A stretch of DNA of 64,000 nt, from the NCBI GenBank assembly GCA_026874595.1, contig CM049318.1:40447956-40511955 (forward strand), read 5' to 3'. Within the stretch, counting starts at the first letter, position 1. Every line of letters begins with the position of its first letter. This document shows positions 3,786 through 46,914 of the stretch, piece by piece. The notes beneath the pieces are model-generated. The model had not been told where the DNA came from, made no database searches, and worked only from the letters and a program-made list of their open reading frames with translations. Source of the stretch: Sipunculus nudus (taxonomy: Eukaryota; Annelida; Sipuncula; Golfingiida; Sipunculidae). The translations under genes were made by a program, and so were the position numbers.

Positions 3786-6700
3786 TTACCTAAAGTAAGT
3801 TTTGCTGAAGACTAACAGTGCAGCCACCAGATAGCACATCATATCGGCACGAAAGTGTCCAGCGGCCGAAATCGGCCCGACCGTCTTGTCTGGACAGGGA
3901 CGGTACCAGCGACAGTACTCGTCCTGGTTCCCAGAACGTTGAGAGAGTGTATAGTTAACAAATTCGTCATTCTTGCTCAACATCCAAGTTACACCAACGA
4001 GCCGTAGGTTGTTGTCCTGCACGAACCCATTCACATTGAACTGGCACCTAAAACAGTAAAATGTCAGAGAAACAATATATTATTATATATTAAATAATAT
4101 TAACTTGTTAATCATTACCTGCTAGAGAAAGGGAAAAATTATGATATGAAATAAAAACTTTACTGCTCCATCACATCAAGTAAAAAACCCCGAATACTGC
4201 CGATATATATATAGATTCTCTATATAGCAGGTTCTCTTATATAACTTCCAAAAAGAGGCTTATTAGCCTGTCCTAATGTTATCTCTGATACGCCTTAAAT
4301 ATTTTTCATCAAAATAATGGAATTGTTTCACAAAACAGTAACAAACCTTGGGCAACTGCCGGCCCATTTCGATGTATTGGGATATGTATTAAGTTCCGTT
4401 TGTTCATAAAGTAGATAGTAGTATGTGTGCGGCTTCTGATCTGGGGGCATCGGTCCTCTGTACGTGTGAATTACTTCTCCGGACGTGACGTCACCGTCTT
4501 GTATGTTGCGCACAAGCCAATGCACCAGAGGGCGCTCGTTAGAGCCGACGCTTTGAGCAGGTACATCCGGGTCAACCATCAGAAGTGTAAGTATGTCACC
4601 TACGAAATTTATAATCCATAATAAAACTTATAATCTGTAAACCCACTTGTAAAACGTGTAGTATGTGTTAAGCATTTTCAGAAAGACGCCAATGATATAT
4701 AAGAGAATTAAAAAAGGTTAAGGGGAATATTACAAGTGACAGGAGCTTGACGAAATTACACCTTTTTCTTACGACTGATTAAAAAAACAGATAATTAGAT
4801 TTAGCATTGTTTGTATTTCTGAAATGCTTAATATTCTCCTAAGATTTGAAAATAAACAAATACCATATGGATGACGATTTCCTAAATTCAATTTGGATCA
4901 TCAGGAACGGCATTTTACGTGTCCTTTTTTTCTAATTTAACATGTCAGTAAAGAAAAAAAATTAATCCTTCATAACATTTTTATTTATAATCTTGAATAT
5001 TCAAATATTAATTTGATAAGAAATCAACGGGGTGAATATGAGCTGAATATGAGCTTTTATTTCGAAAACTCATAGCGGAAAGAAGATGGGCACACATGGA
5101 AATTAGTATTTATAGTTTTCTAAAGAAACATTCTGCATATTAAAAATCATATTACAAATCATTTAAATAGTAAGTATTACACAACTGCTTCAAAAGTAAC
5201 AATGTTGGATAGTCACGTAATGAGGACGGCACGCGGCTTGCCTGGTACTTACCTTGCAGAGCGGTTTTATTATCAGGGTACAAAGTCCTTAAGGACAGCT
5301 GTACTTTGGGAGGATTTCCTGATTTCGTGTCTCCTGCCTTCACCATACCATCACCTACCGGGTCTAGCTTGAACACGTTTCCTCTGAAGAAAAATTTACT
5401 CTCAATATTTATTTGTCAGTCCTTTTCTAGATATAAATATATGATTCAGATTGTGCATACTACATGAAATGCAGAAACACGGTAATAACTGATAAATCAC
5501 AACGCCAAAAGTTAGAATTCATAGCCAAGCAGAGTAAAAGCGAACTCCAAAAGCAGCAAAGACATAAACCAGGTGAATTATCAGTTTCTCGTAAGATTTA
5601 ACACATTTGAGTGTATTTAACAACATTCATTTGATTAATGTCTTCAACAGGTCAGTATATTGGTTATAGATATAATATATTAATAACATTTTAAACCTTT
5701 TAACACAATGTATATCTATATTCTGACCTGTTAGTGAACGGTCTGTCACAGTAGGTGAAACTGAACTCTGGCGAGTAAAATGTGACCGACATGAAAACGC
5801 TCAGTTTGATTCCTGCTGGTATGAAGGGCCGAGGATGTCGAGAAAGTGCTAAAATTATAAAAACAAAATAAAACTGTATCGTATTTTATATAAATTAACA
5901 ATATTGCAGACACTATATATTATTAATGTTTGCCCTTATCCTATCAAACATGATGGTTTAAAATAAATGAAGCTTGATGGGGAAATTTTCTCTCCTAAAA
6001 AATATAAGGAATTTAATAGCGTAATTTCTTTTTCAGAAAAGTCCTGACAGGCTCTACTATATGGACTTTGCCCTACCTTGTGTCACCAGAGAAGCACAGT
6101 TGTCTCCGTAATTCCTCATCGACTGAACGGAATAAGCGTCGTACCAAGCTTTTAACCAGTTTACACCGATGGGACCTATGAATTAAAACATATCAGGTAA
6201 TCCTTATCCGGTCTATTTAAACTTATTGGCCCAGTTAAAATAATATTTTACTGGCCTAAATAACAATGTTACAATTGTGACGTCCAAATTTTTATCATAG
6301 TAAAGGTCTGTTTCCATGTGCGCATATATGCGTATGAGCGTATATGCGTGATAAAATAGGTGTTTCCATGTGCGCGTATATGCGTAAATGCGTGTACTGG
6401 CAGACATATATTTGTACAGGGGATCACGCAGGTCTTCCCCAAAATGATGGTGAAGTGGCGTCATTTTACCCTGAATCCCTGAGTTTACGCAGACCCTATT
6501 CGTGAAAATTGCTCGTGGTGATTTCTACACATATACGCACATACGCATATACACTTACAGAAACATGGAAACACCCAAGTTACAAAATCTTTAGAACGAT
6601 TTTAAACACATTTACGCGCAAACACATATACGCGTACATGAAAACATACCTTAAGACACAGATGATCCTTGGTTTGATTCTTTTACCTGACTTAAGTCAC

Positions 6701-7716: not shown

Positions 7717-10700
7717 GCATATAATACCTATATACCTTGCAACTGATATTCCCTCATGAAATCGGTCACGTTGTCTCTGGAAACTCTGAAAGCTAGCGTA
7801 GCTCGCCAAATCGGGCTCACGACAATATCCTTATGGTCTTGCCGAAAGACGAAATAAACATAGGGGTTCGCTTGATCCCTGTAGTTCCGTGGTCCGTTAT
7901 AAGGCTTAATCATCTGAAAAGGATATTTAAAGTTTTAAATCAGTCTTGTGCGAAATAATGAAGAAATAAGATGATACCTTATTATGCTAAACCACGCAAC
8001 TACTGCACTCACTGAAACACTGGCATAATTTAATCTGTTTTCAGCTGGATTTTAAATGCGATTATTATGATTCTGTGTGTGTGTGTGTGTGTGTGTAACC
8101 TGACATTTAATTCGATTAGACACAGTCAATAGGCTTACATTAACAAAATAGTTATCTCAGGTCAATTATGATTTTTTATTATTGATAATGAACTGGCGTA
8201 GTAGGGGTAATTACAAGACATTATAAAATACAAATATTGCAAGAGACAAGATACCAGTAAGCCCTGGGTTTGATGTAAGTTTTCCTCGATATAATAAGGC
8301 ACTCACCTTCCCTCCACGAAGATCATCTGCCGGAATGTTTACAGTCACCTGGTGAGTGAAGAAGAAACCAGCATCTATCACAAGCAATGTGTAGTGCTCC
8401 CCGCTGTTAGTTTCCCACGTGACTTCCGGTGCTGAACGTGCGTCCCATGGATTATGGGTATCCGACGACAAAGGGTCAAGGGTGAACTTGCGGGAGACTG
8501 GTCTCAGTCCAGCATGGTCACAGCCACTAAACTTTCCTGTGTGACATCATCAAATTTTATTTATTTATTTTTATGCCCCCGCCACAAAGTGGCCGGGGCA
8601 TATAGTTTTACCCATGTCCGTCATTCCGTCCTTCCGTCATTCCGAAATCAAACAGTCGCACGGACTTTTTTTTCGCAATGCCTGCAGATATTGGCCTGAT
8701 TTTCGGTGTGTGGTCAGATAATGACCAGTTACAGATCGAGTTTGCGTTTCGTCCCGGTTGACCTACTCTTGAACGTTTTACGACTCTTTAACTTAGAAAA
8801 TTTTTATGAAAAATAGAAATTTTCATGACAAATACACATGTCGGACTTTTTTTTCGCAATGCCTGCAGATATTGGCCTGATTTTTGGTGTGTAGGCAGAT
8901 AATGACCAGTTACAGATCGAGTTCGCGTTTCGTCCCAGTTGACCTACTTTTGACAGTTTTACGGCTCCTAAACTTAGAAAATTTTATGAAAAATAGAAAT
9001 TTTCATGACAAATACACATGTACGGGCTTTTTTCCGCAATGCCTGCAGGTATTTGCCTGATTTTGTGTGTGTCGACAGATATTGACCAGTTACAGATCGA
9101 GTTTGCGTTTCATCCCAGTTGACCTACTTTTGACCGTTCTACGGTTCCTGAACATAGAAAATTTCATGAAAAAATATAAATTTCCATGACAAATACACAT
9201 GTACAGACTTTTTTTCGCAATACCTGCAGATATTGGCCTGATTCTTGGTGTGTGGGCAGATAATGACCAGTTACAGATCGAGTTCACGTTTTGTCCCAGT
9301 TGACTCGCATTGCCGATTTGACGTTGCTCTAACATAGAAAATTTCATAAAAAAATAGATATTATTTTATAGCATTTTATAAAACTGTCTTGATGAACTGG
9401 TTACAGCTTAATAAGTTTTCAGATACAGACTTATTGACTAATAATGTGATATGGAATAATAAGATGATAGTATATAAAAACAATCCTCTTTTCTTTAAAG
9501 ATTGGATCAAGGCTGGTATTATATTTATCCAGGATATGTTTATCCGGGACGTAATGATAACCTATGAACAGGCAGTGCAGTTGATAGGTGATGGCCCAAG
9601 TAGAATCCTGGAATATAACGTGATGATGAATGCTATTCAAAGCTCAAAAAAACGCCTACAGATGGCGCCACTAAAGGTAATCTTTAGGAGCACTCCGATC
9701 GCTGATTGGAACTTGAAAAAATTAAGATTGTCGATAACCTCCGATACTGTAGACCAGCCCCCGTCTAAGCGGTTCTGGGAAGGAAAATACCCCGGAACAG
9801 AACTCGCAAAGAGTTATTGGGAAACTGCATATCATTGTTCTGGGGAAATTAGACTCCGGGTACTACAGTGGAAGATATTGCATAATATTTTTCCGACAAA
9901 AGTTATGTTACACAAAATGGGCATAGCTGATTCAGAAAAATGTATGTTCTGTGACGAAGTTGAATATATAGAACATTTCTTTTACCGGTGTAAAAAATTA
10001 ATGCCGTTCTGGGAGTATATAGAAAATTATATTCCTAACGTTATTAACAGACGAATTATCTTAAGCGAAAGGCGTGTTATCTTAGGTTATAGTACGGAGG
10101 ATAGAGTACAAGATAATTTATCAGTTCAAGACGCAAATTTCGTAAACAAAACTCTGCTTCTTGGGAAAAAGTCTATCAGTAGGTCAAGATACGGAAATGG
10201 TACTGATGTTAGATATTTATTTGACAGCGAAGTTGTCATATAATCGAGTAAAGTATTAACGCTTAGACTTATGACACATTTGTAAATCTTTGATTGCTAT
10301 GTTATACATTTAACGAAGATATTATGTTTATATGGCATGTGTGTATTGTGGAAAATAAAACAGAAAAAAAAATACATATATGGGCTTGTTCAAAGGATAT
10401 GGACATGCACTTTAAAATGAATACCCATTTTGAGGCAGGGATATAATGTAGCATTTGCAGCTATGGAGGCGTACCTTATACGTCTAGGATTTTGGATGAC
10501 CTTTAATCAACTAAGTTAAAAAATAAAAACAAAAGAAAATAGAAATTAAAGAAGCCCTCCTCGCCACAGTCAAATTTTAACACAGGAGTAATACGCATGA
10601 AATATTAACTTTATTTATTTTACATGGATTATATAATTATTAATACCAGGTTACTATCCATGGTCCGGATGGTGGCATTCAATCGTTTATGGGGGTCGAG

Positions 10701-13700
10701 AAAAACCAGAATACCACTGATCTTGCACAGGCCATACAACCCATTCGCATAGCCATGCCGGGGATTTTTTTCGCCAGCGGACCGTTCCGCCTTACAATCT
10801 TTTTTGTTGATAAAAAACGAAAGATAGAACTATACTTGTACCCTTGTTGACAATACAGACAGGACGAAGAAGGAAAATTACTTTAAATTCTTTCAGAAAT
10901 GTTAATAATTAAGTCAGAGCAAGTAAATAAGATACTGTGTGGAGATGGTAAAGGCGATATCTCAGTGATTTAGTTTCAAATAAGATTAATCAGCTTGAAA
11001 AATCGGGTGAAATTAAATACTGAATCTCAACTCATATATGGTTCCTGCTGAAACTTCTATGTACAAAAGGGTTGTTTTTCACAAACTCTAAGGGGTATTA
11101 GGTACGTTACTATCGCTGTTGATGTTGTAGTTTACCATTGTACAAGTAAGTGTTTGTTTTAAGGTGAGTGTCCTTATCTTTCGAACAAGCCCATATACTT
11201 ATTGATTGCAATTAGACTCGCGGAGTTATTAGCTAACAGATGTTGATAAGTCGGTTCAACTAAAATTCTGCCTTCTAGACATTTTGTACTATGTTTATAT
11301 CTAGTAGGTAAGAAAATATATTAATTGTGTTGATAAAGAAGATGCCGTCACGAAAAGAAAAAGAAGAAAAAAAAAAAAAAAAAAAAATAGAAATTTTCAT
11401 AACAAATGCATATGTACAGACTTTTTTCCTCTATGCCTGCAGATACCACCCTGATTTTTTATGTGTGGGCAGATAATGACAGTTACAGATCGAGTTCGCG
11501 TTTCGTCCCGGTTGACCTACTTTTGATTGTTTTACGGCTCCTAAACAGAGAAAATTTCATGAAAGACAGAAATTTTTATGGAAAATGCACATGTATGGAT
11601 TTTTTTTCACAATGCCTGCAGATACTGGCCTTATTTATGGTGTGTTGCATGATAATCACCCGTTACAGAACGAGTTTGCATTTTGCCCTTGTTGACCTAC
11701 TTTTGACCATACGACACCTCCTGAACTTATAAATTTTTTTTCAAAATTTAACAAATGTTACTAATTTGCCCCAGGCGGGGGCTTTCGTGTCGTTCCGACA
11801 CATCTAGTTATTTATAAAATACAAGATTTCAAAAGTAAAAAAAAGTGCTTCGGATATAAATAATGAAAAAGATTATACTGGCTATACAATAATCATTAAC
11901 AGTTCTATAATTTAAACGAGGGTACAATTTTAACCCTGAATCATATTTTACATTTTCTTAATTTCTTGGTTAAAAAGCTAACTTAAAAGAGTGAGTGAGT
12001 TCGATGAATGAATAATCTATATGGCATCTCATTTTTTTAGTAATGGCTTTAAAATATAAGTAGTGTTAAAATGTATATAATGAGAAGAATGATATATATT
12101 TTAGTTTATAAAAAAAAATACATTGATCTCTAATGATAAATTCCGAAATTACTCTCAGGGAATATATAGATTTAGTCCATTGGCCAGAAAGTGAAAACCT
12201 CCCCCCCCCCCCCCCCAGGGAATTTTCGCGACCCCCCTAGTTTTTATCCTGAAGGTGTCCTTTACTCATTTCCAGGTTTTTCACCCTGAAAAATCACTTT
12301 TTTTACAAACTGCGGCTAAATTTTTAATTTTTGCAGCTTAGACGACTTTGTGTCACACTATCGGCTATAACTTCATAACTATGCATCATAATTGCATAAT
12401 CATGGTATCAAATAAACCGTAGGAAAGTGTGCTAAAAAAATAAAATATAGTTTAGCCCAGGTAAAAGAACATGCTACAATTCTGTGGGCATTATTTTACC
12501 CCTTACCCCTTATTTTTATGCCAAAAAAATTTATATCTACGTACAAACGTTTGATGCCAAAGGCAAATTTGTTGGATATAGGCCTATCATTGAGTTTGGA
12601 TTGTTCCATTTATTGATTAAGAGTGATGCATGCATACAATTGCCACGGTAACCCATATTCTTGGAAATAATTTACAATACCGATGAAATATACCGCATAT
12701 ATTTCAAGCATTTTCAGGCGATACCGTCTTCACGGTGTATACTGCTCCCCACAAATTAAGCATAACTGCCAAATTTTAATATCATTGGCTTTCAAGGATC
12801 TTGCTTAATTAAACGATTACAGAAGGGGTTTAAGGACATATGGAAAACAAAATAGTAAATGCATGTACTCTACCCAACCCTTTCAAATCATGAAGTGGTC
12901 GAAACTGCAATTAATTAAACCTAACAGCTTAATCTAAATAAGCATCTATTTTGCCACTGATAGAATCTTACCGTATTAATTTTTTTTGCTGACAAGTATA
13001 CAAAACAATATATATATTTATGAACCACAAGAATTACCCATTTATGTAAGTTCCTTAAATATATTTACTGATTACACGTTTAAGGTTATGCATGTTTTCA
13101 GTTATACCTGCAATATCACATTGTGTTTAGCTCAATGACTTTGAAGATTTAAATGCAAACCGAAATCATTGATATTGATAAATATCTGACATTTTTTAAA
13201 ATATTTTTTAGTCACAAATAGAAAAAAGTCTAATAATCTAATAAAAAATAAACAATAATTATTCATATATAAACAATAACTATTTATTAGCAAACACAAT
13301 TACACTCAAGCAAGGTTTGATCAGCTTATAGAAACGAACAAAGTTGTACCATATAGGATAGATATGGTCTCAGAAGTACCAGACAAAATTCCTGTATTAT
13401 GTTGGCAATTGTACTGGCCGTTTTACCAATAAAAGTATCATAACGTATGTGCAAAATAAATACAAAGAAATATTGTAATTGTTAAACTACCATGTATCTG
13501 GTCACATTGTGCCATGGTATAAAGACAATACAGTAATATTAAAGAAGATCACTGGCAATATGTGTCTACCCATAAATGAAATGGGTTTATGATTCATCAT
13601 CGTAGATGATATCCACTAAATTGTTGATGTCAATATCATCGACATCTAAGTCATCTTCATCACTCTCAGCCTTTCCGTCTAGTATGATATCAATAAGCTC

Positions 13701-16700
13701 TTGTGGCAGCATGTCTCCTTTCACCCAATCTATCTGCAGTTCCCCTTGATCATCAAGTCTCCATCCTTTGCCTACAGGACTTGGTATGTCAGGATAAGCT
13801 ACATCTGACATGTTCCAGATATAAGCCTGGTAGTTGCATCTAAGGATATGCATGTGAAGCGATGATTTGCATGGGGGTAAGAGGCTAAGGTCAATACCAT
13901 CAGAACTCGATAGTGCCTGGCCTTTCTTGGGTTGAAACTTCTGTTTGAACATGTCATACCGCAGCTTATTTACATTTGTGTAGCTGCTCTTCCCATACAT
14001 GCAGCAAACAAAGTGTTCCAGCTCATCAAATGTTCCATCAGAAATATTTGTGGTACTTGCCAAAGAAGCAAATGATGACTGAAACCCAGGGAAGGAATCA
14101 AGGGTCTTCTTTGGTGTTAGCTTCCCACGACGGACAAAAGCGCTTGTGGTGTCACATCCGGTAAATGCGTGAAGGGAGAACAAGATTTTACAGGAATCTG
14201 CTCCTTGTTTGGCCACAACTGATTTCACGTCAATAAGTCTCCTCTTGTTCGACACTCCCGTATCAAACAAAACAGATTGCTCAATATCATGACAAAACTT
14301 CAAGAGCAACAGAAACACATCAGTGTCTGGTGATCGAACTATGATCACAGTGTCTTCATTTGTTGACTTTGCAGCATGGATGCAGTGAAGAATGATCCTG
14401 GTATCAGCTTCTTGTGAAGAAAAATGACTCTGCTCTTGCACATGTTGGATCGTTTTACCATCTTCACTGGTCAGATGAATGCACTCTTCCTTGAGTGCAA
14501 AATATATGTGCCTGTTCAGAAGTTTGGAGGCATACTTGTCCGTTTTCCACTCACACAATAATAATCTAGTCAGTTGTTCTTTGTTTGTACCATTATTCAT
14601 GAACGTTTTCCAGTCACGAGGAATCTTGGTATTTGGGCCTTGGATCAATTATGTCTGTGACTCACCACGTCGAGATCATTCATATCTCTTGATCGAATTC
14701 TCCTTATAGGCGTCTGTGACAAAGTCTTACCTGGGAACCTTTGGCAGGAGATTGAACACTTTATCGGCACGTTGCTCAAAAGTAGTGGGCAGACCAACAA
14801 GAGCTTGTAAGATCGCATTGCCATCCACAACATAAACTGATTCGGCCAGCTTTGGTGTCTCAGGGACTGTCACACCTGACTCCAGTAAATGAAGTAATTT
14901 AGCTTTTTCAGTCTTCACTGGATGACCATCAGCAGTTGCTAATGCCCATGGTATTGGTGCCAATGGGTAGCTGAGCGTTTTCTCTAAGCTGATATTGTTC
15001 TCCTCTGAAAGCATTAACAGCTGTCCAAAGAGGTTCCTTTCAGCTCTAACTTCGATGTGTTTGTTAGTTGTTCCCATAGCTTTTTTTGTTTCCTTCATTG
15101 ATGCAAATGTAGTCAAAGTGTTCCTTTGGATGGGTTGGTAGAAGCTCACTGATTTATCAACAAATCTCTTTGTAAGAAAATCATTGAAAGCCTTTTCTCC
15201 AACTGCATCAGCATTCAACAAATCAGACTAAATCTTTGAAGTTGCTGGTGCTCCAGATGATAGACAAAACAGTTTGTCCTTAACATCAATCCGAAAAGGG
15301 CTCACAAATCCCTTAAATGATTCAAGAAGTGACTGGATATCTGACTCTGATTTTGTCATTTGTGACTTTCTCATATCCTTGTGCACATCTATCTCTGGGG
15401 AAGTCATATCTGCCTTGTCAAATGCTGCCTGCATGAAAGAAGCTCTGGCATGACGTGTGATACACCACCTGTTGTAGGCTGCAGGATTTCTGCTGAAGCC
15501 AACAATGCCACAATGTGACTTTGCGTGTCTGTTGATCGTCTCTTCAATGGTGAGATCCACAGGATTCCCTGAGGATGGAACATTTGATCTGGAAACACTG
15601 AATCCATTTTTGCGTAGCAAGTCCTCAGCGCCTTAGTGGGTATCTGATAAATTCAACAAGGTAAGGAGATGCACTGGAACGTATCGTGCATAGTTATGGT
15701 GATTGTAGGCAAAAAATGCCGGGCACATATCCCACAATGAGGCAATATGCAAGTCAAGGTCGTTTAACCTTGTTGCTCTGGAAAATCGCAGGAGCAAAGC
15801 GACCTTCTCCATATAGTTCAGCCAGAAGGCAGCCGTTTTGTCAAGCTCTCCTTGACGTATGGTATCCTTGAAAGCACAAAATTCCTGATAAAGTTTTTTG
15901 AAACAATCACTTGCAAGTATGTCATTCAATCCGGCTGGACATGGGGACTTGGTGAGAATCTCAAGTCTCCCCTGCAAGCTGCAAAAGCCGCTCCAGGGTC
16001 TCGTACATCAACTTGTGCACTCTCATGGCACGATTGTAATGTTTACCACGCAACAGTTGATCAATGGATCCACTAGCACAGACACCTGCTTCAATAATAA
16101 TGTCCTCAAAGCCTGATCCAGCCATCATCTTGCCAAGAGCTCCAAGATATGAGCAAATTGTATGGAACACTCCGATCCGTACAAGAACATCTTTGTACTC
16201 CTCTGGATTTTGCCACATTATAGAATATGCCTTCATCACTACAGCTAGATCAAATGTTACGATTGTAACCTTTTGATTCACATCCTTTGTAGCCTGCTGT
16301 GAAATCCTGAGAATCTGCTGTACTGTGGCATTATTGGTGATTGGTCTGTGTTAAGTACCATATAATCTATTGTAGACTGGGAACAAGGTCCATCGTATTC
16401 AGCTTTTCCAGTGAGGGACAACCATCCTGCCCAGCCAGGGACACTTTGATCATAGGACTTGTGCAACCTTGCAAGTACCCATGCAAAGTCAGACTTCTTG
16501 CATTTATTAAGTGAATTTGACTTATTCACAGACACATGCCTTACTGTGAGATGTGGCTCCTTCCTGCTCTTGACAAAACAAGGAGGAAGTTCGGTATCTG
16601 TATACTGAATTGACCTGTCTTTAGTCTTCTTCTGTGGTTGTTCCGGCCCCAGATGGGATTTCTTCTGACATGTCGAAGTTGTCCCAGCTGAAGTGAAGAA

Positions 16701-19700
16701 CATTATTCATTGCAGAGATGGTCCTTGGAAGCAATGATTGGTGTGTTGATTTTATTGCAAATGGCAGTTTCAAGTTCCATGACTTGGGAATATGACTAGC
16801 AGTGTCCAAAGCGATTAAGCAGAGTAATTAGCTCAGCACTGCCTGTCATATGCCTCAATGTCATTCCAAGGAGGACATGTTTGGTCATTTTCCAGTCTCC
16901 TCGACTTAAGGCATAGCATATATCTTGAGCACAAGAATCTACTACTCGCTCCGCCTTTCCTGAAATATCCTTATGGGATTTCCTGCATATCAGATGTGAC
17001 AAAAAGTTCAGCAAGACATCCGGTGGTTTATTTTCTGAAACCATCAACTGAGTTGCTGTAGGTGGCCATTGATATGTAGCTGCATTCTTTTTGGCATCTC
17101 ATAGATGTCGCCTAAGGACAGCAGCAGCTTCCTGAAGAAATCTCTCCTCAGAGGCAGCCATTTCAAATGCCACTTCTACTGCTTGTCCAACTGGCAATAA
17201 GTCTGAATAGATTAGTTCACTCCGGTAGTTAGGTGCCCAAAATTTATTTCTATTCTCAAACTGTTTCTGAAGCTTATTTTTAAGCTTGTGTGTTTTGTAA
17301 TTTGGATTGTATGCAGCGGGATAATGTTCCTGCAAATAAAGCAAATATTTCTCCTTCAACATAGTCACACGTTCTACATTGCATGCATTGATGATGTGTT
17401 TTTCAACGTAATCACAAATGTACTTGAATGCCTCTTTGTGGGCAGTTAATTGTTCACTAGCTTCTTCATCAGGCTCTTTGTTCTCATTTCTAACATCTTT
17501 TCTGGTGTAGTCTCTGCGACAGGAATTATGATAATGTGCCTCTCTCGCACACAAGTCTAAACCTTGGATTTTTCTTAATAATACGTAGTCATGTTTCTGC
17601 TGTGCAGCATCCTGGATGGATTTAGCTGCCGTTTCAGTGACACATTTTGTCAGATATTCTGATTTCTTCTTACACCATATTCTATTTTTCCCACAAAACA
17701 GGCATTGGTCTGAACGAAACAGAATTGCAGAGGATGACAGACGCTTGTGTTTTGATGTTGAAGGACCATCTTCGTCGTCTTGTTCGGTACACTGCCGTTT
17801 CCTGTCTTTTATGTGTCCGATGTTTGTGAACCTCTGATTGCACTTTCTGTGAGCTCCATGGATATCCTTATTAAATTCTACAGGAATATGGGCACATATT
17901 GCGTCCAGTTTAACATTTACATTGTCACTGTCTTTGCGCAATTTTACTGTTTCTTGAATTTTTTCAAAACTAGTTTGAGAAAGCGTTCGAACCTGTTTAT
18001 CAGTCCTCTGCTCAGGAAAATGTACAATACAAGTTACTTTAGGGCATGCTGCAGAGGTTTCTTTTTTTTTACCTTTCTTCTTCCGCAAACTCATCGGACG
18101 TTCTGCCATTATTGTTTATATGGTGTTTATCATAATAAAGGAAAAAACACCCGTTTCTACCTAGTTACTGGAATATGAGAATACAGGCTGGTACAAAGAG
18201 GCAAACTTTCAAATCAAATTTACCTGTACTCTCAGTGAGCGACAAAGGCATGTAAAAAGAAGCAAACGTTTAATTCAAATTTCCTTTTACTTTCAGTGAG
18301 TGACAGCGTTAAACAAATACACCCCTGTAGAAATACGACTTATACAGTCAACCATTTCGACAACTGTTTCAAACGAGTTGGGATGAGGAGAATGCTTAAT
18401 ATTAGCCTGATATTTCATGTAATCTTACTGAATCTTTCCTGGTCAGTTGCCTTCCCAGAAACCCTGATGAAAACAGCCACTGACAACTTGTACTCAAGAG
18501 TAACAAAAACAATCAAAACTAAACTTACATGCAAAGTTTCTTTCTATGTTTAACTAAATGTTTGGCGCCATATATGAACAAAATAACGACCACTTGTTCA
18601 AGTTGTAAGAAGGTGTAGAGTTTGGAGTGGTCAATATTTATGGTGTAGGGAATATTAAAACTATTTTACGCCAGTCGTTTTACAGAGTTTGTTTGTTGCC
18701 AACCTGATATTTCATGTAATAGTATTAGATCCTGCTCGGTCAGTTGCATTCGCAGTAACACTGGTGAAAATAGCCAATGGAATAATTTGTAACATAGAAA
18801 AAAGGTAACATGAGATGCAAAGAGACTTTTCTATGTTTACCTATAGTTTCAATCCATATATATGTAACATAACCATGAATCACTTGTTAAAGTTTTTGAT
18901 TATAGGAAAAGCATGCATGTTTGCCCAGTCAGTATTTGTAGTTTAGGGGTAGCAAATATGCACTTAAAAGGATATTTTTCTACCTTTTTCTAATGTTCCA
19001 TATGTCTTTTAACAATTATTACACAGAGAAAGTTCATAGAAAGACAGTGTATGTGATACCAAAATTGGCAGTAATGCAAACTTTGTGGCAGTGTAGGGGA
19101 GCATTATACACTGTGAAGCTGGTATCGCCTGAAAATGCTTGACATGCATACCTTTCATTGGTTATTGTAAATTATTTCTCAGAATATGGGTAACCGTAGC
19201 AAATATATACATGCATTATTCTTGATAAATAAATGGATAAATGCAAACTCAATGATATGCCTAAATCCTAAAAATGTGCCTTTGGTATCAAAAGTATGTA
19301 TGTAGATACTTTTTTTCATAAAAATTAAGGGGTAAGGGGTAAGATAATACCCTCAGAAGTATAGCATGTTCCTTTACCTGGGCTAAACTATATTTTATTT
19401 TGTAGCATGCTTTCTTACGATTTATTTGATACCAAGATTATGCAATTATGATGCATACTAATGAAGTTATAGCCGATCATGTAACACAAAGTCGCCTAAG
19501 CTGAAAAACTGAAAATTTAGCCCCGGTTTGTAATAAAAGTGATTTTTCAGGGTGTTTGCAGTATTTATATGTTTGGAAAAACCTGGAAATGAGTAAAGGA
19601 CACCTTCAGGATAAAATCGAGGGGGGTCGCGAAAATTCCCTGGGGGGAGGGGGGGGGGGGGAGGGGAGGTTTTCACTTTCTGGCCCATGGACTAATTTCT

Positions 19701-20999
19701 CTCAAAGAGTCTGAATAATTTTATTATTCTAGATAGTCCCTGTATATAAAAGCTGTTTACAAATCAAATCCAGAAATAAAGGACACTGACCTCTCTCAGA
19801 TGTGTAACTGATGTTCAGGAAGACTTCCGGAGCATAGACGGACGCATTCAGTGTGCCGGGCGCAAACATCCGGGACACCAAACTGCGGGTTTTTGTGTCT
19901 GAGTTGAAACAATCTACGTCAATCCTGGCCAAAGCCTCAGAGCACCGTTCAGCCCAGGAATCACCGAACCAGAAGTAATCCGTATCAAACATGGCGGTCT
20001 TGATGCCGGATAAACATTTTGATTTGTCGATGATTTGTCCATTTCCATCAAGGCACGGAGTTTGGCTTTTCACTGTCACTATAGGCAGAGAAACAGGTCG
20101 TGAAACTGTTACATACAAACAAACTGAACGTCTCGTTCGTGCCTGTTATCCCATACACCTATACTGAATTCCATTAACCCCTTCTGCATACATAAACCCT
20201 AGAAACAGACAAACACTCTACTCGAATATATAAATAAAAACTATTTAAATACATGCCTTTGCCACAAAACTAAATATTAATTATTTTTTACGAATATTTG
20301 TGTGTGTCGACAGGTATTGAGCAGAACTGTAATTTCTCGTACCATGTAGCAACATATTTACAGCAGGTATAGTCAATAAATGAAATTTTACAGAACCCTT
20401 ATACTGTGGTTGCCTTTTCATTCGCGAGGGTTTTAATTTCGCGATATTTCCGAATGTGAAACAATCGCGAATATGAAACCCTCGGGAATAAATTGCCTCA
20501 TCAACTAAGATGAATATGAAATGCTGATGCATTTACAAAAACAGATTAGATATCACAGCTCTGGAAACAAGATAATCAGCAATCTAATCGGTACATGGTA
20601 TGAAAACTGACCCATGCACAAGTCATAAGTGAAGGACTGAACCAGATATGAATGAGGTATTGTAGGATGTATTCTAAATTTAAAATCAAGACAAATACTG
20701 CTGCACTTAGATTGTATAAGTTCTGGTGAAATCCCGAAAAGTTCGAAATGAATTAATCGCGAAATTTTAACCTCGCAAATATAAAGCCAAACACAGTGAT
20801 ATCCCGCTTGGCGTACAAGCTAGCATGGCTCAATATTTCTCAATTCCTTTCTCACGGTTATATACTAAATGCTGAGCATATAATCCTGCTTGGAATTGTT
20901 ATATGTTAAAAAAAAACAGGTTTATTAATTTGTGAAGTTCTAAAACCACTCACCGGTAAAAACAGACATTAGGATGACAAATGTCTTCAGGCGATTCAT
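3786..20999 (-). CDS. Secreted two-domain PEBP-family protein, paralog 1 (9 exons, 535 aa)
   Basis: Exons, in transcript order: 20999-20954, 20078-19791, 8536-8307, 7913-7736, 6175-6077, 5848-5728, 5383-5253, 4599-4347, 4047-3786. All introns are GT-AG and phases join without a stop, giving 1,608 nt. The start (MNRLKTFVILMSVF) is a signal peptide. Exon 2 encodes a four-cysteine N-terminal region. Exons 3-6 encode a degenerate PEBP domain (about residues 120-285): the usual DPDxP loop reads LLVIDAGFFFTHQ and the later GxHxY histidine is lost (ANPYVYFVFRQ). Exons 7-9 encode a canonical PEBP domain with MVDPDVPAQS, LVHWLVRNI, YRGPMPPDQ and HTYYYLLYEQ. PEBP proteins bind phospholipid headgroups or other anionic ligands; the ligand here is unknown. 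Several N-x-S/T sites fit secretion. The C-terminus (MMCYLVAALLVF plus six residues) could be a GPI signal or membrane tail. Intron 2 is swollen to 11.3 kb by transposons. Exons were assigned by eye. Confidence 0.88.
6301..6654. mobile_element. MITE with TIRs in intron 4 of PEBP gene 1
   Basis: The ends are inverted copies (TAAAGGTCTGTTTCCATGTG at left; the reverse complement of the right end reads TAAGGTATGTTTTCATGT). Inside are repeated GCGTATATGCGT motifs in both orientations. No coding capacity. PEBP gene 2 has a truncated copy at the equivalent place, so insertion predates the duplication. Confidence 0.6.
6655..7735. other. Intron 4 of PEBP gene 1, remainder
   Basis: AT-rich intron sequence colinear with 43080-44047 in gene 2. 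Nothing coding was seen. It ends in a (TTA)n microsatellite at 7679-7713. Confidence 0.6.
7679..7713. repeat. (TTA)n microsatellite
   Basis: About eleven ATT/TTA units lie 23 bp from the exon-4 donor of PEBP gene 1. The equivalent site in gene 2 carries (TA)n instead. Confidence 0.9.
8071..8096. repeat. (GT)n microsatellite
   Basis: About thirteen GT units in intron 3 of PEBP gene 1. The gene 2 equivalent (about 44390-44435) is an interrupted GT-rich tract. Confidence 0.85.
9389..10243 (+). pseudogene. Non-LTR retrotransposon ORF2 C-terminal fragment
   Basis: A 284-codon open frame covers the region after the RT catalytic core: a thumb/connection-like segment, an YxWETAY-type helix and a zf-RVT-like zinc motif (CMFCDEVEYIEHFFYRC, spacing C-x2-C-x7-H-x4-C). 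This C-terminal zinc motif is common in L1/Tx1-type LINEs. The endonuclease and the RT palm are missing, so the fragment is dead by 5' truncation even though its frame is open. A related LINE lies at 54700-56545. Confidence 0.7.
10381..11193. mobile_element. MITE with about 40-bp TIRs nested in the LINE
   Basis: Left end TGGGCTTGTTCAAAGGATAT and the reverse complement of the right end TGGGCTTGTTCGAAAGATAA are near-identical and remain similar for about 40 bp. TATA flanks both ends (target duplication TA or TATA). It has no ORF. Confidence 0.7.
12173..12790. repeat. Left terminal inverted repeat of the 7.5-kb element
   Basis: Inverted copy of about 19060-19694. It includes the poly-C tract at 12201-12217, the CCCCTTACCCCTTA segment and the GCGATACCGTCTTCACGGTGTA segment, each found inverted at the other end. 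Confidence 0.75.
13587..18109 (-). pseudogene. Decayed about 1,500-residue element protein with C-terminal FEN1/PIN-like nuclease region
   Basis: The gene reads from ATG at 18109 through a long N-terminal frame (17099-18109) with cysteine/histidine clusters (CLFCGKNRIWCKKK, LCAREAHYHNSCRRDY), then through conserved blocks to a 353-codon intact C-terminus (13587-14648). In-frame stops occur near 17100, 15631, 15229, 14726 and 14691. Frame changes occur near 16800, 16650, 16330 and 15970. The C-terminal half has, in order, VYVVDGNAIL, DAYKENSIKRYE-stop-SRRG, EADTRIILH, SPDTDVFLLLL and FTGCDTTSAF. This mirrors the acidic-residue order of FEN1/XPG nucleases (VAIDA, EAEA, EDxD, GSDY plus a following helix-turn-helix). 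Similar long proteins recur in invertebrate genomes, usually unannotated. Nuclease function is an inference. Confidence 0.7.
19060..19694. repeat. Right terminal inverted repeat of the 7.5-kb element
   Basis: Inverted copy of 12173-12790 with scattered differences and a longer G tract at 19641-19668. The divergence between arms indicates an old insertion. Confidence 0.75.
20402..20799. mobile_element. 398-bp MITE with TA target duplication
   Basis: TIRs read TACTGTGGTTGCCTTTTCAT at left and, reverse-complemented, TCACTGTGTTTGGCTTTATA at right, both followed by a TCGCGA-rich block. TA flanks both ends. The intron-1 site in PEBP gene 2 (ACCCTATTCCG near 46015) is empty, so insertion followed the duplication. 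Confidence 0.75.
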
Positions 21000-21586
21000 C
21001 TGGCCGCTCTTTAAAACTGAAGTTAAAAAAGGCCCATGAGGACGCTTGATTGTCTTTTCATAGTACGACCAATAGAGTAACTATACGATCCATGTTTATA
21101 CAAACGAAAATCCTTTCATGAAAATAGGTGAATTCATCAGCGTCATTTAGGTTTTATAAAAATAAAATATATTCTTTGGAGTTATATTTTTTTGCGCTAA
21201 CTGGTTATTCTCAAACCAATGAATTCTGTAAGTCAATTTAAATCTCTTTGAGCAACGTAGCATTTCACCAGGTGGTCTAACAAAATGCTTTCAAGGTAAA
21301 AATTGCAGGCTATTTAAGTATAAAATGTAAGGTGTTTCGAAGTGTTAACCTGAGGTTTTCATTGAACACAGCAGTTTAAATTTAATGATTCAAATATCTA
21401 TTGTGTAAACAAAAATAGAATTTAAATTGACAATAAAAAGTCTGCATTGTATTAAAAAACAGACTATTTATATAATAATTAACACGAAAGCCAACGAACT
21501 CTCTAAATTATGTATCTGGAGTTTGATTATAGTACACAACCTATATGATATCCAACCAAATATATCATACAGTCAAGAGTAACCTA

Positions 21587-33458: not shown

Positions 33459-34113
33459 TCAGCAAAGTACATTGTCATTCCCTTTAATGTGCATGGTATC
33501 AAGATTGTAATCTTGTAAGAACAAACTCCATCTCAACAATCTTTGATTTTTACACTTCAACTTGTTCATGAACGTGAGGAGATTGTGATCACTGAAGACA
33601 ATGATAGGCCTGACTGATGAAGTAACATAAACTTCAAAATGTTGCAACGCCAAAATCAAAGCCAAACATTCTTTTTCAATAGTGGAGTAGTTTTTCTGTT
33701 TTGCATTAAACTTTCTTGAGAAATAACAAATTGGATGATCTATGCCATCATTGCCTTCCTGTAACAACACAGCTACAGCAGCAGTATCACTAGTATCTAC
33801 AGCTAACTTAAAAGGTACAGAAAAGTCTGGAGCTGCTAAAACTTTGCAGAATTGCTTTCAAATTCTGAAATGCATTTTCACACTGAACATTCCATACAAA
33901 CCTTTGTTTCTTCTTTAACAAATTAGTCAAAGGTTCAGCTACAGCAGCAAAATTTAAACAAAACTTCCTGTAGTATTCAACCATACCAAGAAAACGCATT
34001 ATTTGCTTTTTGCTTTCTGGTCTAGGAAATGCAGAAATAGCACTTATCTTAGCATCAACAGGTTTAACCTGACCCTGCCCTACAATATGACCCAAAAATG
34101 TTGTGCATGACAA
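33459..34113 (-). pseudogene. rh: RT connection and RNase H of the Gmr1-like element
   Basis: FLGHIVGQGQV and RFLGMVEYYRKF are the RT-to-RNase-H linker. The next frame has YFSRKFN, STIEKECLALILAL and FSDHNLLTF, the usual gypsy RNase H motifs. The frame is broken between 33770 and 33808. It ends about 150 bp before the polypurine tract. Confidence 0.8.
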
Positions 34114-34139
34114 AACTCAAATTTTTCTAAGTTGTCGGT

Positions 34140-34710
34140 CAGACGTGCTTCACCGAGTCTTTCGAAGAGGTCGCGAAGAATTTGCAGATGTTTCTCTCAG
34201 GTGTCGCTGTACACGATAAGGTCATCAATATATGCGTCGCGGCCCTGAATGTCCTTGACAACCATATGGAGGAGGCGCTGGAACGTGGCTGGGTTCTTCA
34301 TGCCAAACGGCATAACTTTATACTGGTACATTCCTTGCGGCGTCACAAATGCGGACACTTCTTTCGCTCGTTCTGTCAACGGAACTAGCCAGAATCCTTT
34401 AGCAAGTCAAATTTGGAGACATACCTGGAGCTACTGACTCTATCAATACAATCATCGATCATCGGAATCGGGAACGTGTCAGTCTTGGTGACAGAGTCCA
34501 GTTTTCGATAATCTGTGCACATACGGTAACTTTAATCAGGTTTTGGCACAAGAATATATGGTGAACTCAAGTTACTTTTACTAGGTTCAATAAAATCATT
34601 GTCCAGCAAATATTGAATCTCATCCTGTAGATACTTTTTGTTTACTGGATTCAGTCTATATGGATGTTGCTTGACTGCGCTTGCCTCGCCAACATCGACG
34701 TCATGGCACA
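34140..34710 (-). pseudogene. rt: Reverse transcriptase of the Gmr1-like element
   Basis: Blocks run KQHPYRLNP, DNDFIEPSKSNLSSPYILVP, a stop after PKPD, YRMCTDYRKLD, FDLLKGFW, MPFGMKNPATFQ and the catalytic YIDDLIVYSDTW (34197-34379). The order is typical of Ty3/gypsy RT. The in-frame TAA after PKPD and a later frameshift inactivate it. Confidence 0.82.
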
Positions 34711-34959
34711 ACATGTTAGTTCGCGTACGAATGTCACTAAACAAATGTTCATTATTCCGCAGCAGGTTCTTGAGATCTTGTTGTTGTTGTGCGGTAAGGT
34801 GTAACAGTTTGGCATCCAGGTTTTTAAGTACGTCTGAGTTTTTTAATGGTACTGTAGCACACTGAATTTCTACATCACACTTACAATCAGTATCTACTTT
34901 AACTGGGTCAGGGTCAGTTTTTACACAATTAACAGCAGTACCATTTTGTACAACATCTG

Positions 34960-36020
34960 ATGTGCTATTTCTGTCATAATACGGTTTCAACATGTTAACA
35001 TGGCACAGTTGTTTCTTCTTACGTCTATCTGGTGTCAACAGTATATAATTCAAATCACTGACTTTCTTGTCAACAATGTAAGGACCAAAATACCTAGCTT
35101 GAATTGGTCTGCAAGGGATGGGAAGTAAGGCAAGGACCTTTTCCCCAGGCTCAAACGTCCTACTTACAGTGTGCTTGTCATACTTTGTTTTCATTTTACT
35201 TTGTGCAGATTTTAGATTTGACTTTGCAATCTCACAAGCATTGTGTCGTTTAGTGCTAAAGTCTGAGACATACTGCAGTAAACTAAGAGAATCAGGATTT
35301 TTACACAAGATTTTTTTCCTTAAAGCAGTTTCAATAGACCTCGAATGGAGTGTCCAAAAACTAGTTCAAAGGGACTGAAACCTAAGGACCCTTGAAAGGA
35401 TTCTTTGACAGCAAACAGCAATAGGTGAATTCCTTCATCCCAGTCTTTCTTTGTGTCATAGCAATAAGTCCTGATCATGTTTTTTAATGTCTGGTGTAAA
35501 CGCTCGAGGGCGCCCTGACTTTCAGGATGGTATGGCGAAGAGCTGTACTGTTTTATACCTAGCTCAAGCATAACTTGTTGGAATAAGCCAGACATAAAAT
35601 TAGACCCTTGGTCAGACTGGACGGATTTTGGTATTCCAAAAGTTGTAAAAAACTTGGTCATAGCTTTGACAACACTTTTGGCATTAATTTCGCGCAATGG
35701 TATTGCCTCAGGGAACCTGGTAGATGCGCATATAATTGTCAGCAAGTATTCATGTCCAGATTTTGTTTTGGGCAGTGTTCCAACACAATCAACAATAATC
35801 CTACTGAATGGTTCCTCGAAAGCAGGAATAGGCCTAAGTGGGGCCTTAGGAGGATTCTTATTGGGCTAGCCTACCATCTGGTATGTATGGCATGATTTAC
35901 ATTATTGTACAACATCTTTCCTGAGGTTAGGCCAATAGAAGTGTGTAATCACTTTCTGGTAAGTTTTATTTATACCTGAATGGCCAGACAAAGGAGCCTC
36001 ATGTGCCATGCTTAGAACTT
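34960..36020 (-). pseudogene. int: Integrase of the Gmr1-like element
   Basis: The HHCC zinc-binding part (HEAPLSGHSG, then CKSCH) lies at about 35880-36015, interrupted by a stop. The catalytic core (35320-35745) shows QSDQGSNF and, further on, HPESQGALERLHQ, the second and third acidic positions of D,D-35-E. After a frame change, a GPY-like C-terminal module follows (RYFGPYIV, LCHVNMLKPYY). It lies upstream of RT in transcription order. Confidence 0.8.
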
Positions 36021-36689
36021 CACTGCGAAAGCTTTTGGGCATTACTATTTGATGTTTTAAATGGCCCACTCATCATCAGCGCATACATCAGGTGGTCGCT
36101 ATTTACGCATAAGCACTCCATTTTTTACATAGAAACAAACTGGGTCCTGTGACAAAAAGAAACTGCCCTGGGAAACAAACATGAAATATCAGGGTCCTTA
36201 TGCTGTTCCGCGATAAGTTCTGATCTTGAGAATGCTGTATCTTGTACGGGCGAGTCATTAGACGAGTCACTAGTGACTCCCAGAATGTTATTATCTGGAC
36301 CATTATCCTCATGTGTGTTTTCTTGGCCATAGATCTAGTTACACATGAAGGATACAAACCATGAATTTCCTGACTTTCCGGATCAGTGTCCTGATCAAGT
36401 GACGGCTTTTCTGTCACTATTGGTACAGGCTGTACTTTATCACCTGCAACATCATTGCCTAGTAGCAACTGAATTCCCTTAAAGGGCAAAGTAGTTCTTA
36501 TGCCCACAGTAATATTCCCAGAAATCAAATCTGACTTTAAATGGATACTGTGAAGCGGAACTGAAGTTTTCCTGTCTGAAAACACACCATTAACAAGTGC
36601 ATGTGTACCAGTAAAGGACCTATTAGAAAACGGCAAAGTGTTTGCTAACATGAGAGTCTGGCCTGAACCAGTGTCCCTAAAAATTCTAA

Positions 36690-44041: not shown

Positions 44042-46229
44042 TTATACCTTGCAAGTCATATTCCCTCATGAAATCGGTCACGTTGTCTCTGGAGACTGCG
44101 AGCGCTAGGGTAGCTCGCCATCTCTGGCTAACGACAATATCCTTACTGCCTTGTCGAAAGACGAAAAACACATATGGATTCGCTTGATCCCTGTAGTTCC
44201 GTGGCCCGTTATAAGGCTTGATCATCTGAAAAGGATATTTAAAGTTTAAATCGGCCGTGTGCAATATAATGAAGTTATGACATGATACCTTATTATGCTA
44301 AATCACGCAACTACTGCATTCACTGAAAAACTGGCATAATTTTATCTGTTTTCAGCTAGATTTCAAATGCGGTTATATAATGATTCTCTGTGTGTTCGTG
44401 CGTGTGTGTGATGATGTGTTTAGGTGTGTGTGTTACCCGACATTTAAGTTCGATTAGACGCAGTCAATAGGCTTAAATTAACAAAATATTTATGTCAGGT
44501 CAATTTTGATTTTGATTTTTTTTTTATAATGTGGTATGGTACATGACAAGCCATTATAAAATACAAATATTGCAAGAGACAAGATACCAGTAAGCCCCGG
44601 GTTTGATGTAAAGTTTTCCTCGATATAAAAAGGCACTCACTTCGCCTCCACGGAGATCATCTGCCGGTATGTTTACCGCCACCTGATGAGTGAAGAAGAA
44701 ACCAGCATCTATTACAAGCAACGTGTACTGCTCCCCGCTGTTAGTCACCCACATGACCTCCGGTGCTGAACGTGCGTCCCACGGATTATGGGTATCCGAC
44801 GACAAAGGGTCAAGAGTGAACATACGGGAGACTGGTCTCAGCCCAGCATGGTCACAGCCACTGAACTTTCCTGTGTGACATCATCAAATTTTATTTATCT
44901 ATTTCATTTCTAAAATACAACCTATCAAAAGGACATAAATGTGCTTCGAAAAGAAATAATGAAAAAGATTATACTGATTATACAATAATCATCAACAGTT
45001 TTATAATTTGGACGAGGGTACAATTTTAATCCTGGATAAAATTTTACATTTTCTTAATTTCTTGGCTAAAAAGCCAAGGAGTGAGTGAGTTCGATGAATG
45101 AATGATCTAAATGTCGTCTCTTTTGTTTATAATGGTTCAATGTATAAGTAGTAATGAAATGTTGGCCTATATAATGAGAAGAATGTTATGTTTTTTTTAG
45201 TTTATTTTAAAAAAATGCATTACTCTCAGCCAACAAATTCTGCATTTCTCTCAGGGAATATATAGATTTCTCTCAAAGATTCTTGATAAATTAATTATTC
45301 TAGATTTTACCTGTATATAAAAGAAGTTTACAAATCAAACCCAGAAATAAAGGAGACTGACCTCTCTCAGATGTGTAACTGATGTTCACGAAGACTTCCG
45401 GAGCATAGACGGACGCATTCAGTGTGCCGGGCGCAAACATCCGGGACACCAAACTGCGGGTTTTTGTGTCTGCGTTGAAACAATCTACGTCAATCAAGGC
45501 CACAGCCTCAGAGCACCGTTCAGCCCAGGAGTCGCCGAACCAGAAATAATCCGTATCAAACATGGCGGTCTTGATGCCGGATAAACATTTTGATTTGTCG
45601 ATGATTTCTCCATTTCCATCAAGGCACGAAGTCTGGCTTTTTACTGTCACTAGACAGAGAAACAGGTCGTGATACTGTTACATGCAAACAAACCGAACGT
45701 CTCGTTCATACCTGTAATCCGATATTGATTTCCATTTGCACCTTACTTGTGAAAAAATTACCCTTCTAAATACATCGACCCTAAAAACAGACAAACGCGC
45801 TACTCGAATATATGAATCAAAACTATCTAAATACATGCCTATGCCAATTGAATATATAAAAAAAACTTATTATTTATCATTTTTTACATATGTGTTTGTG
45901 TTTGTTTGTGCGGACAGGTATGGGGCAGTATACTGTAATTTCTCATTCCTCGGATCGAAGCAAATACAAAGGCATAATTACTGCAGGTAGTCAATAATTA
46001 AAATTTTACAGAACCCTATTCCGCCTGGCGTCCTAGCTAGCATGGCTAAATAATTCCATCTCTTCAATTGCTTTCTCACTGTTATATGCTGAATGCTAAA
46101 CATATAATCCTGCCTGGAATTATTAAATGTTCAGAAAAACAGATTTATAAATTTGTGAAGTTCTAGATATATAAACCACTCACCGGTAAAAACAGACAGT
46201 AGGATGAAAAATGTCGTCAGGCGATTCAT
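40387..46229 (-). CDS. Secreted two-domain PEBP-family protein, paralog 2 (9 exons, 542 aa)
   Basis: Tandem paralog of the gene at 3786-20999 with the same exon structure: 46229-46184, 45649-45362, 44870-44641, 44225-44048, 42795-42691, 42469-42349, 42002-41872, 41174-40907, 40648-40387. Frame is open throughout (1,629 nt). Exon 5 is 6 nt longer and exon 8 is 15 nt longer than in paralog 1, both in frame, so the copies differ by small indels and substitutions but neither shows decay. It keeps the signal peptide (MNRLTTFFILLSVF), the degenerate first PEBP domain (LLVIDAGFFFTHQ), the canonical second domain (MVDPDVPAQS, HWLVRNI, HTYYYLLYEQ) and the hydrophobic C-terminus. The gene is compact (5.8 kb) because it lacks the intron-2 insertions of paralog 1. 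A 73-bp MITE sits directly behind the exon-7 donor. Function beyond ligand-binding PEBP fold and secretion cannot be inferred. Confidence 0.88.
41790..41862. mobile_element. 73-bp MITE at the exon-7 splice donor of PEBP gene 2
   Basis: Ends are TAGCCTCTTCCACAG and, reverse-complemented, TAGTCTCTTACACAG. GGTATTTACC is duplicated on both sides (41780-41789 and 41863-41872). A 9-10-bp target duplication fits Mutator-like elements. PEBP gene 1 lacks it (5240-5260). Confidence 0.75.
42905..43075. mobile_element. Truncated MITE remnant in intron 4 of PEBP gene 2
   Basis: Matches the left part of the element at 6301-6654 (GGTCTGTTTCCAT, GCGTATATGCGTG) but lacks the right TIR. It is a deleted paralog of the same insertion. 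Confidence 0.6.
43990..44039. repeat. (TA)n microsatellite in intron 4 of PEBP gene 2
   Basis: About 25 TA units end nine bases from the exon-4 boundary. The paralogous position in gene 1 is (TTA)n. Confidence 0.9.
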
Positions 46230-46914
46230 CTGGCCGCTCTTTAAAACTGAAGTTAAAAAGGGCCCAATAGGACGCATGACTGTGTTTTCATAGTACGACA
46301 AATAGAGTAACTATACAATTCATGTCTATACAAACAAAAACCATTTCATGGTTAACAAAGTGAATTCTTCAGCATCATTTACGGTTAATGCAAAATTCTA
46401 TGTTCTTCGGGGTTGTTTCCCGCTAACTAGTTATTATCAAACCAATGTATTCTGTTAGTCAATTTAAATATTTTATTTTCTAAAATAAAAATTTATTCAA
46501 ATATGACAGATATGGGTGATGATATAAGATATTTTTAATTCAACTGGTTAAAATTAAGATATTTGTATAACTGTTTTCGTCGACAAATTGGCCCTTTAGC
46601 CCAGATCTCGTTGAGCAATGCAACATTTTACCAGTAACAGCAAGGTGGTCTAACAAAAGCCTCTGAGATAAAATTTCAGGCCAGTTAATGTATAAAATGT
46701 AAGGTGTTTCGAAGAGTTAACCTTAGGTTTTCATAGAACACAGTCAGCATATTATATTTAATAATTCAATTATCTATTGTGTAAAAAATATTATTTGAAT
46801 TAACAGTAATAAGATTGCATTGTATAAAAATAGATTGTTTATATAAAAATAAACACGAAAGTTAAAAAAAAATTCTAAAATTTATATCTGATGTTTGATT
46901 ATAGTACGTAACTT

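What the first reader, a model, noticed from the sequence alone, without database searches (positions are those of the whole stretch)
12173..19694. A 7.5-kb TIR element that encodes a FEN1/PIN-like protein instead of a recognisable transposase
Boundaries are secure: about 600-bp inverted arms, a 3-bp ATT duplication and an empty paralogous site in PEBP gene 2. The single large gene is decayed but readable, and no DDE/DDD, Rep/helicase, tyrosine recombinase or RT motif is visible. If intact relatives are mobile, they may use a flap-endonuclease-like enzyme, which would be a new transposition chemistry or a new superfamily. An alternative is that this is a non-autonomous passenger of a known superfamily that captured a host-like gene.
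Basis: partly seen in the sequence, partly recalled or inferred. Interest (0 to 1): 0.85.

Follow-up and report, generated by a model that had tools for sequence, protein, structure and literature searches.

The report
Decayed Academ-type transposon with flap nuclease
This is a dead copy of a cut-and-paste jumping gene whose enzyme joins a probable transposase to a DNA-repair-like flap nuclease; the combination is real but fits a transposon class already described (Academ, nuclease branch), so it is probably not a new kind of transposition.

Summary
A 7,522-bp element at 12173-19694 has 612/641-bp inverted arms, an ATT duplication and an empty paralogous site (45266-45268). Of ten more inverted pairs fetched from the same genome, six carry the same protein and four are non-coding; exact 3-bp duplications flank 7 of the 11. 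The six loci with gene copies at least 80% identical (82 of 497 candidates scored) lie between such TIRs. One copy has a single stop in 1,418 codons. The C-terminal part looks like a RAD2/FEN1/EXO1-type nuclease: seven acids are conserved among relatives 26-44% identical, and the profile's best PDB hit is Exonuclease 1 (E 0.025, weak alone). The same protein also carries an upstream conserved D...D...E core, split over two frames in the window's broken copy, which is probably why no transposase was seen. A second lineage (41-45% identical where it aligns) has TAG-starting TIRs and a CAA duplication. TIRs, 3-bp duplication, DDE-like core and nuclease fit AcademX, the nuclease branch of the known Academ superfamily. 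Comparison with a reference Academ protein was not possible, and the alignment-based structure prediction could not be run.

The parts
12170..12172 (.). target site duplication ATT, left
12173..12784 (+). left terminal inverted repeat, 612 bp, starts TAGTCCATTGGCC, holds a C-run
13587..15230 (-). C-terminal part of the protein: RAD2/FEN1/EXO1-like nuclease; in-frame stops at 15228, 14727, 14676, 14649. Seven conserved acids at codons 14823-14825, 14712-14714, 14409-14411, 14403-14405, 14325-14327, 14319-14321, 14151-14153
15231..16007 (-). C-terminal part of the transposase-like core, holding the candidate catalytic E (15543-15545) in motif E...N...K; in-frame stop at 15633
15961..16350 (-). 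middle of the core in another frame; candidate second D (16249-16251) and GxFH motif (H 16162-16164)
16281..16706 (-). piece of the core between the first and second D, in the same frame as 13587-16007
16650..16707 (-). short open stretch with the candidate first D (16681-16683) in WDNFD
   Evidence: counterparts read by eye in L086, L097, L112, L114, L116
16796..18115 (-). N-terminal part from the start codon at 18107-18109, with paired cysteines (CLFC...) and one in-frame stop (17099-17101)
18406..18894 (+). two internal direct repeats, 18406-18604 and 18703-18894, 68% alike
19054..19694 (-). right terminal inverted repeat, 641 bp
19695..19697 (.). target site duplication ATT, right
45266..45268 (.). 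single ATT of the empty paralogous site

Best explanation
A decayed autonomous DNA transposon, most likely of the Academ superfamily, nuclease branch (AcademX). Shown: TIR-bounded insertion with a 3-bp duplication, a family of related copies, and one long protein whose upstream part holds conserved D, D, E (plus GxxH and N...K) positions and whose C-terminal part has the seven conserved acids of a RAD2-type nuclease. Inferred: the upstream part is an RNase-H-fold DDE transposase that binds the long TIRs, excises the element and joins its ends to target DNA with a 3-bp stagger. Inferred: the fused nuclease trims flaps, or cuts the second strand at the element ends or in the target. The 4.8-6.4-kb elements without a gene are probably moved by the coding copies.
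For: TIRs, duplication and empty site. Ten other inverted pairs, all starting TAG at both ends; with the window, 7 of 11 have exact 3-bp duplications, 3 have one mismatch, 1 has inverted flanks. Six of 10 carry the same protein, mostly at 80-100% identity per piece with some weaker pieces; among the 82 candidates scored of 497, the six loci with copies of at least 80% identity lie inside TIR pairs. L086: 881 + 536 codons around a single stop. Nuclease acids in A3, rows acidic of rows covering: 21/21, 23/23, 23/23, 23/23, 24/24, 23/23, 22/22 (rows not all independent). Profile A4: Exonuclease 1 is the top PDB hit, E 0.025, two collinear stretches. hhalign of A4 to 49 archaeal FEN1: score 30.0, 0 of 200 column shuffles as high (max 27.9), reversed 17.2. 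Weak PIN_4 match in the L086 protein, E 0.13. Core: D320 9 of 10, H349 10 of 10, E577 14 of 15, N581 13 of 13, K585 15 of 15. DUF6589 in 2 of 22 rows, best E 9.2e-5. L129, 41-45% identical over residues 16-543 and 1168-1409 of the L086 protein, has 128-bp TIRs starting TAG and an exact CAA duplication. AcademX: 3-4-bp duplications and, by implication of the passage, the nuclease (PMC10045372). Academ is expanded in bivalves and treated as a DDE/D superfamily (PMC10294476).
Against: No Academ reference sequence was on hand, so membership rests on features. The single-sequence fold of the nuclease part failed (mean pLDDT 35) and the alignment-based fold was never accepted. The two Exonuclease 1 stretches are weak on their own (independent E 81 and 3.4), and an earlier profile ranked R2D2 (E 0.53) above Exonuclease 1 (E 1.3). 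The FEN1 alignment puts DTD and GCD in register but places the EAD motif two columns off. DUF6589 stays below its curated cut-off and did not appear for L086's 881-residue piece or its whole protein. No TIRs were found around two other relatives, L097 and L130. The middle of L129 showed no match. Single-sequence comparison of the window's nuclease with FEN1 was no better than shuffles.
Confidence: 0.84

Rival explanations
1. A DDE transposon superfamily separate from Academ, related to DUF6589, that carries a RAD2 nuclease.
For: Membership in Academ could not be tested by sequence here; DUF6589 similarity is weak.
Against: The Academ features given in the passages read (nuclease, 3-4-bp duplication, DDE/D class, long element) are matched here, the DDE class only by conserved residues.
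Confidence: 0.08
2. The flap-endonuclease-like domain is itself the transposase and no DDE chemistry is involved.
For: Its acids are among the most strictly conserved positions of the protein, and no library matched a known transposase.
Against: The upstream core is conserved too: second D in 9 of 10 rows, E in 14 of 15, and a first D read by eye in five loci.
Confidence: 0.05
3. A non-autonomous passenger of another superfamily that captured a host FEN1-like gene.
For: The window copy is broken; four related TIR elements are non-coding.
Against: The nuclease and the upstream core share one open frame in L097 and L119. Related nuclease parts are found at dozens of diverged loci. None of the 10 other TIR pairs showed a large frame other than this gene.
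Confidence: 0.03

Closest known systems
AcademX, the nuclease-encoding lineage of the Academ superfamily
   Same: DNA transposon, 3-bp duplication (3-4 bp in print), encodes a nuclease, DDE/D class; statements read as passages in PMC10045372, PMC9587614 and PMC10294476. That the nuclease is called XPG is recalled from Kojima 2020, which is not held.
   Different: Arms over 600 bp in the window's copy; six of seven coding copies are 6.5-7.7 kb and one 5.2 kb, against a 5,565-bp mean of curated bivalve Academ; no direct sequence comparison was possible.
AcademH
   Same: Same superfamily
   Different: Helicase in place of nuclease, 9-10-bp duplications (PMC10045372, passages).
RAD2/XPG family nucleases (FEN1, EXO1)
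   Same: Seven conserved acids and the GCD...G.GK..A region matching Exonuclease 1; DTD and GCD in register with FEN1
   Different: Too diverged for single-sequence detection; linked to a transposase-like core.
Pfam DUF6589
   Same: Weak collinear similarity over the core
   Different: Below the curated cut-off; absent for the whole L086 protein.

Membership tests
Academ superfamily, AcademX lineage | 3-4-bp target site duplication | tested here: met
   3 bp exact in 7 of 11 pairs, one mismatch in 3, inverted flanks in 1; CAA in L129
Academ superfamily, AcademX lineage | encodes a nuclease (XPG type, name recalled) | tested here: met
   Conserved acids and Exonuclease 1 / FEN1 profile matches; sequence level only, moderate strength
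Academ superfamily, AcademX lineage | DDD/E transposase core | tested here: inconclusive
   Conserved D, D, E candidates; fold not predicted
Academ superfamily, AcademX lineage | sequence relationship to reference Academ transposases | not testable with these tools
   Kojima 2020 not held; no Repbase sequences on hand
Academ superfamily, AcademX lineage | terminal inverted repeats | tested here: met
   not found for L097 and L130
RAD2/XPG nucleases | seven active-site acids in order | tested here: met
   Conserved in this family; the pairing with FEN1 D34, D86, E158, E160, D179, D181, D233 is by recalled motifs, and hhalign supports it for DTD and GCD but not exactly for EAD
RAD2/XPG nucleases | RAD2 fold | tested here: inconclusive
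   Single-sequence model pLDDT 35

The most novel reading that the evidence does not exclude
The fused flap nuclease is an obligatory second catalytic centre of transposition which, together with the DDE core, sets the short 3-bp stagger (against 9-10 bp in the helicase branch): a two-nuclease transposition pathway. I know of no experimental demonstration, but did not search for one specifically.
Probability: 0.25. Interest if true: 0.6.

Novelty: new member of a known kind. Interest (0 to 1): 0.25.

Why it matters
It turns a suspected new chemistry into a probable member of a described superfamily. It also gives a genome with many diverged, partly intact nuclease-linked copies, 3-bp duplications and an empty site, which makes the role of the nuclease in Academ transposition testable.

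Tried and rejected
Viral-contig scans for relatives of three pieces found none. Pfam, PHROGs and PDB searches with single window pieces gave no match at its curated cut-off or better than marginal, and L086's 881-residue piece found nothing in the PDB. The A2 profile found nothing in the PDB. A regular expression for flap-nuclease motifs (2 of 200,000 shuffles matched) was dropped, because it was written from the query and only 1 of 49 archaeal FEN1 matched it. The IES glutamate after GxFH was considered as the catalytic E and rejected, because some relatives have Q or G there. Structure prediction without an alignment was poor. The alignment-based job always met a full queue, so no fold search was run. 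TIR search around L097 and L130 found none. Three unpaired TIR stretches, L094-L096, were fetched but not analysed beyond their ends and open frames; L095 and L096 show the same end.

Full report
What was checked. The element at 12173-19694 is real and its edges are exact. The two arms (612 and 641 bp) align over their whole length with 535 of 597 aligned positions identical and 59 gap positions. The sequence ATT stands at 12170-12172 and again at 19695-19697. Blast of the two flanks against the window places the left flank on 44897-45268 and the right flank on 45266-46017, overlapping by 3 bases; the alignment at the junction is clean on both sides. A terminal 29-base pattern is found only at the two ends, with none in 100 shuffles.

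The gene. One protein is encoded on the minus strand from 18109 to 13587. The two longest in-frame stretches (18115-16799 and 16007-13590) hold six stops, and the reading frame changes several times between 16800 and 15960.

The family in its own genome. The assembly has 1.43 Gb in 153 contigs; a search with 161 bases from the left end gave 119 candidates, of which 40 were scored and 40 matched. From these I chose and fetched ten further inverted pairs and three unpaired stretches. All ten pairs start TAG at both ends. Exact 3-bp duplications are seen in L084 (GGA), L085 (TTT), L087 (ATA), L089, L090 and L092 (TAA) and in the window (ATT): 7 of 11. L086, L088 and L093 have one mismatch in three; L091 has flanks that are inverted copies of each other. 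Six of the ten (L084-L089) carry the same protein (L085 lacks the C-terminal part). Four (L090-L093) have no frame longer than 160 residues and form a separate non-coding group that shares a small part of its length with the coding group. In L086 the protein is open for 881 and 536 residues around a single stop. A protein search of the same genome with the nuclease part gave 90 matches (82 candidates scored of 497), from 99% down to 27% identity. The six loci with copies of at least 80% identity are the window, L084, L086, L087, L088 and L089, all inside TIR pairs.

The nuclease. An alignment of the window's part with 14 relatives (26-44% identical) has five of the seven acids invariant and two at 90% or more. 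In the larger alignment A3 the seven positions are acidic in 21 of 21, 23 of 23, 23 of 23, 23 of 23, 24 of 24, 23 of 23 and 22 of 22 rows that cover them; some rows are close relatives or fragments of one locus, so these are not independent counts. I pair them with the FEN1 active-site acids by recalled motifs. With a first profile the PDB search ranked Exonuclease 1 behind R2D2 (E 1.3 and 0.53). With a broader profile of 21 sequences the best PDB hits are Exonuclease 1 (E 0.025; next other protein, ribosomal eS25, E 0.55), in two collinear stretches around VFD...K..ER.RR and GCD...G.G..A, each weak alone (independent E 81 and 3.4). A profile comparison with 49 archaeal FEN1 scored 30.0, with 0 of 200 column-shuffled controls as high (maximum 27.9; reversed alignment 17.2); it aligns the DTD and GCD motifs with their counterparts, but places EAD two columns off. 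A first try with 15 sequences was marginal (26.1 against 24.8 for the best of 60 controls), and a single sequence gave nothing. I take this as good but not conclusive evidence for the RAD2 family.

The transposase-like core. Upstream, in relatives that are open over this region, the positions D320, H349, E577, N581 and K585 (L097 numbering) are kept in 9 of 10, 10 of 10, 14 of 15, 13 of 13 and 15 of 15 rows. The first D, in a DN.D motif, was read by eye in L086, L097, L112, L114 and L116 and was not counted systematically. Pfam DUF6589 matches a window piece at E 0.018, the joined window pieces at 2.6e-4, 2 of 22 alignment members at best 9.2e-5, and a slice of L086 at 0.012, but not L086's 881-residue piece or its whole protein. 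The assignment of D, D and E as catalytic is inference.

A second lineage. L129 matches the L086 protein at 41% over residues 16-543 and 45% over 1168-1409, with no match between; it has 128-bp arms starting TAGACTGT and an exact CAA duplication. For L097 (33% over 349-1409) and L130 (43% over 1045-1378) no TIRs were found in the stretches fetched.

What it is. PMC10045372 (passages read) states that AcademX makes 3- or 4-bp duplications and AcademH 9- or 10-bp, and relates the difference to the enzymes, helicase and nuclease, that they encode; that the nuclease belongs to AcademX follows from this. PMC9587614 (passages read) lists Academ among superfamilies with a DDD/E transposase. PMC10294476 (passages read) reports a bivalve-specific amplification of Academ with 100 curated elements of mean 5,565 bp. 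The window's element fits these features. I recall that the Academ nuclease is called XPG; Kojima 2020, where I recall it from, is not held. Which animal the window comes from was not determined.

How it probably works. Step 1 (inferred): the N-terminal cysteine-rich region and core bind the long TIRs. Step 2 (inferred): the DDE core cuts at TAG ends and joins them to a target with a 3-bp stagger. Step 3 (inferred, least certain): the RAD2 nuclease removes flaps or cuts the non-transferred strand. Shown here are the anatomy, the repeated 3-bp duplications, the linkage of both parts in one protein, and the conservation of both sets of residues.

Noticed in passing
L090-L093: A 4.8-6.4-kb group of elements shares the TIR ends but holds no frame above 160 residues: likely long non-autonomous partners.
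   Followed up: partly
L091:398-412 and 5213-5227: The two flanks of this element are exact inverted copies of each other over the 15 bases shown, so the element may sit in a larger palindrome or at an assembly foldback.
   Followed up: no
window 33459-37349: Minus-strand frames that look like a gypsy-type retrotransposon (integrase- and reverse-transcriptase/RNase-H-like by eye).
   Followed up: no
window 8667-9362 and 11382-11737: Repeated units left of the element, about 76-85% alike.
   Followed up: no
window 19695-21586, 45266-46907 and 2-663: Diverged duplicated blocks around the insertion site (77-86% alike), consistent with a small gene family; the PEBP name was not tested.
   Followed up: no
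window 9350-10243 and 55206-56012: Frames ending in cysteine/histidine motifs as in LINE reverse transcriptase ends, by eye.
   Followed up: no
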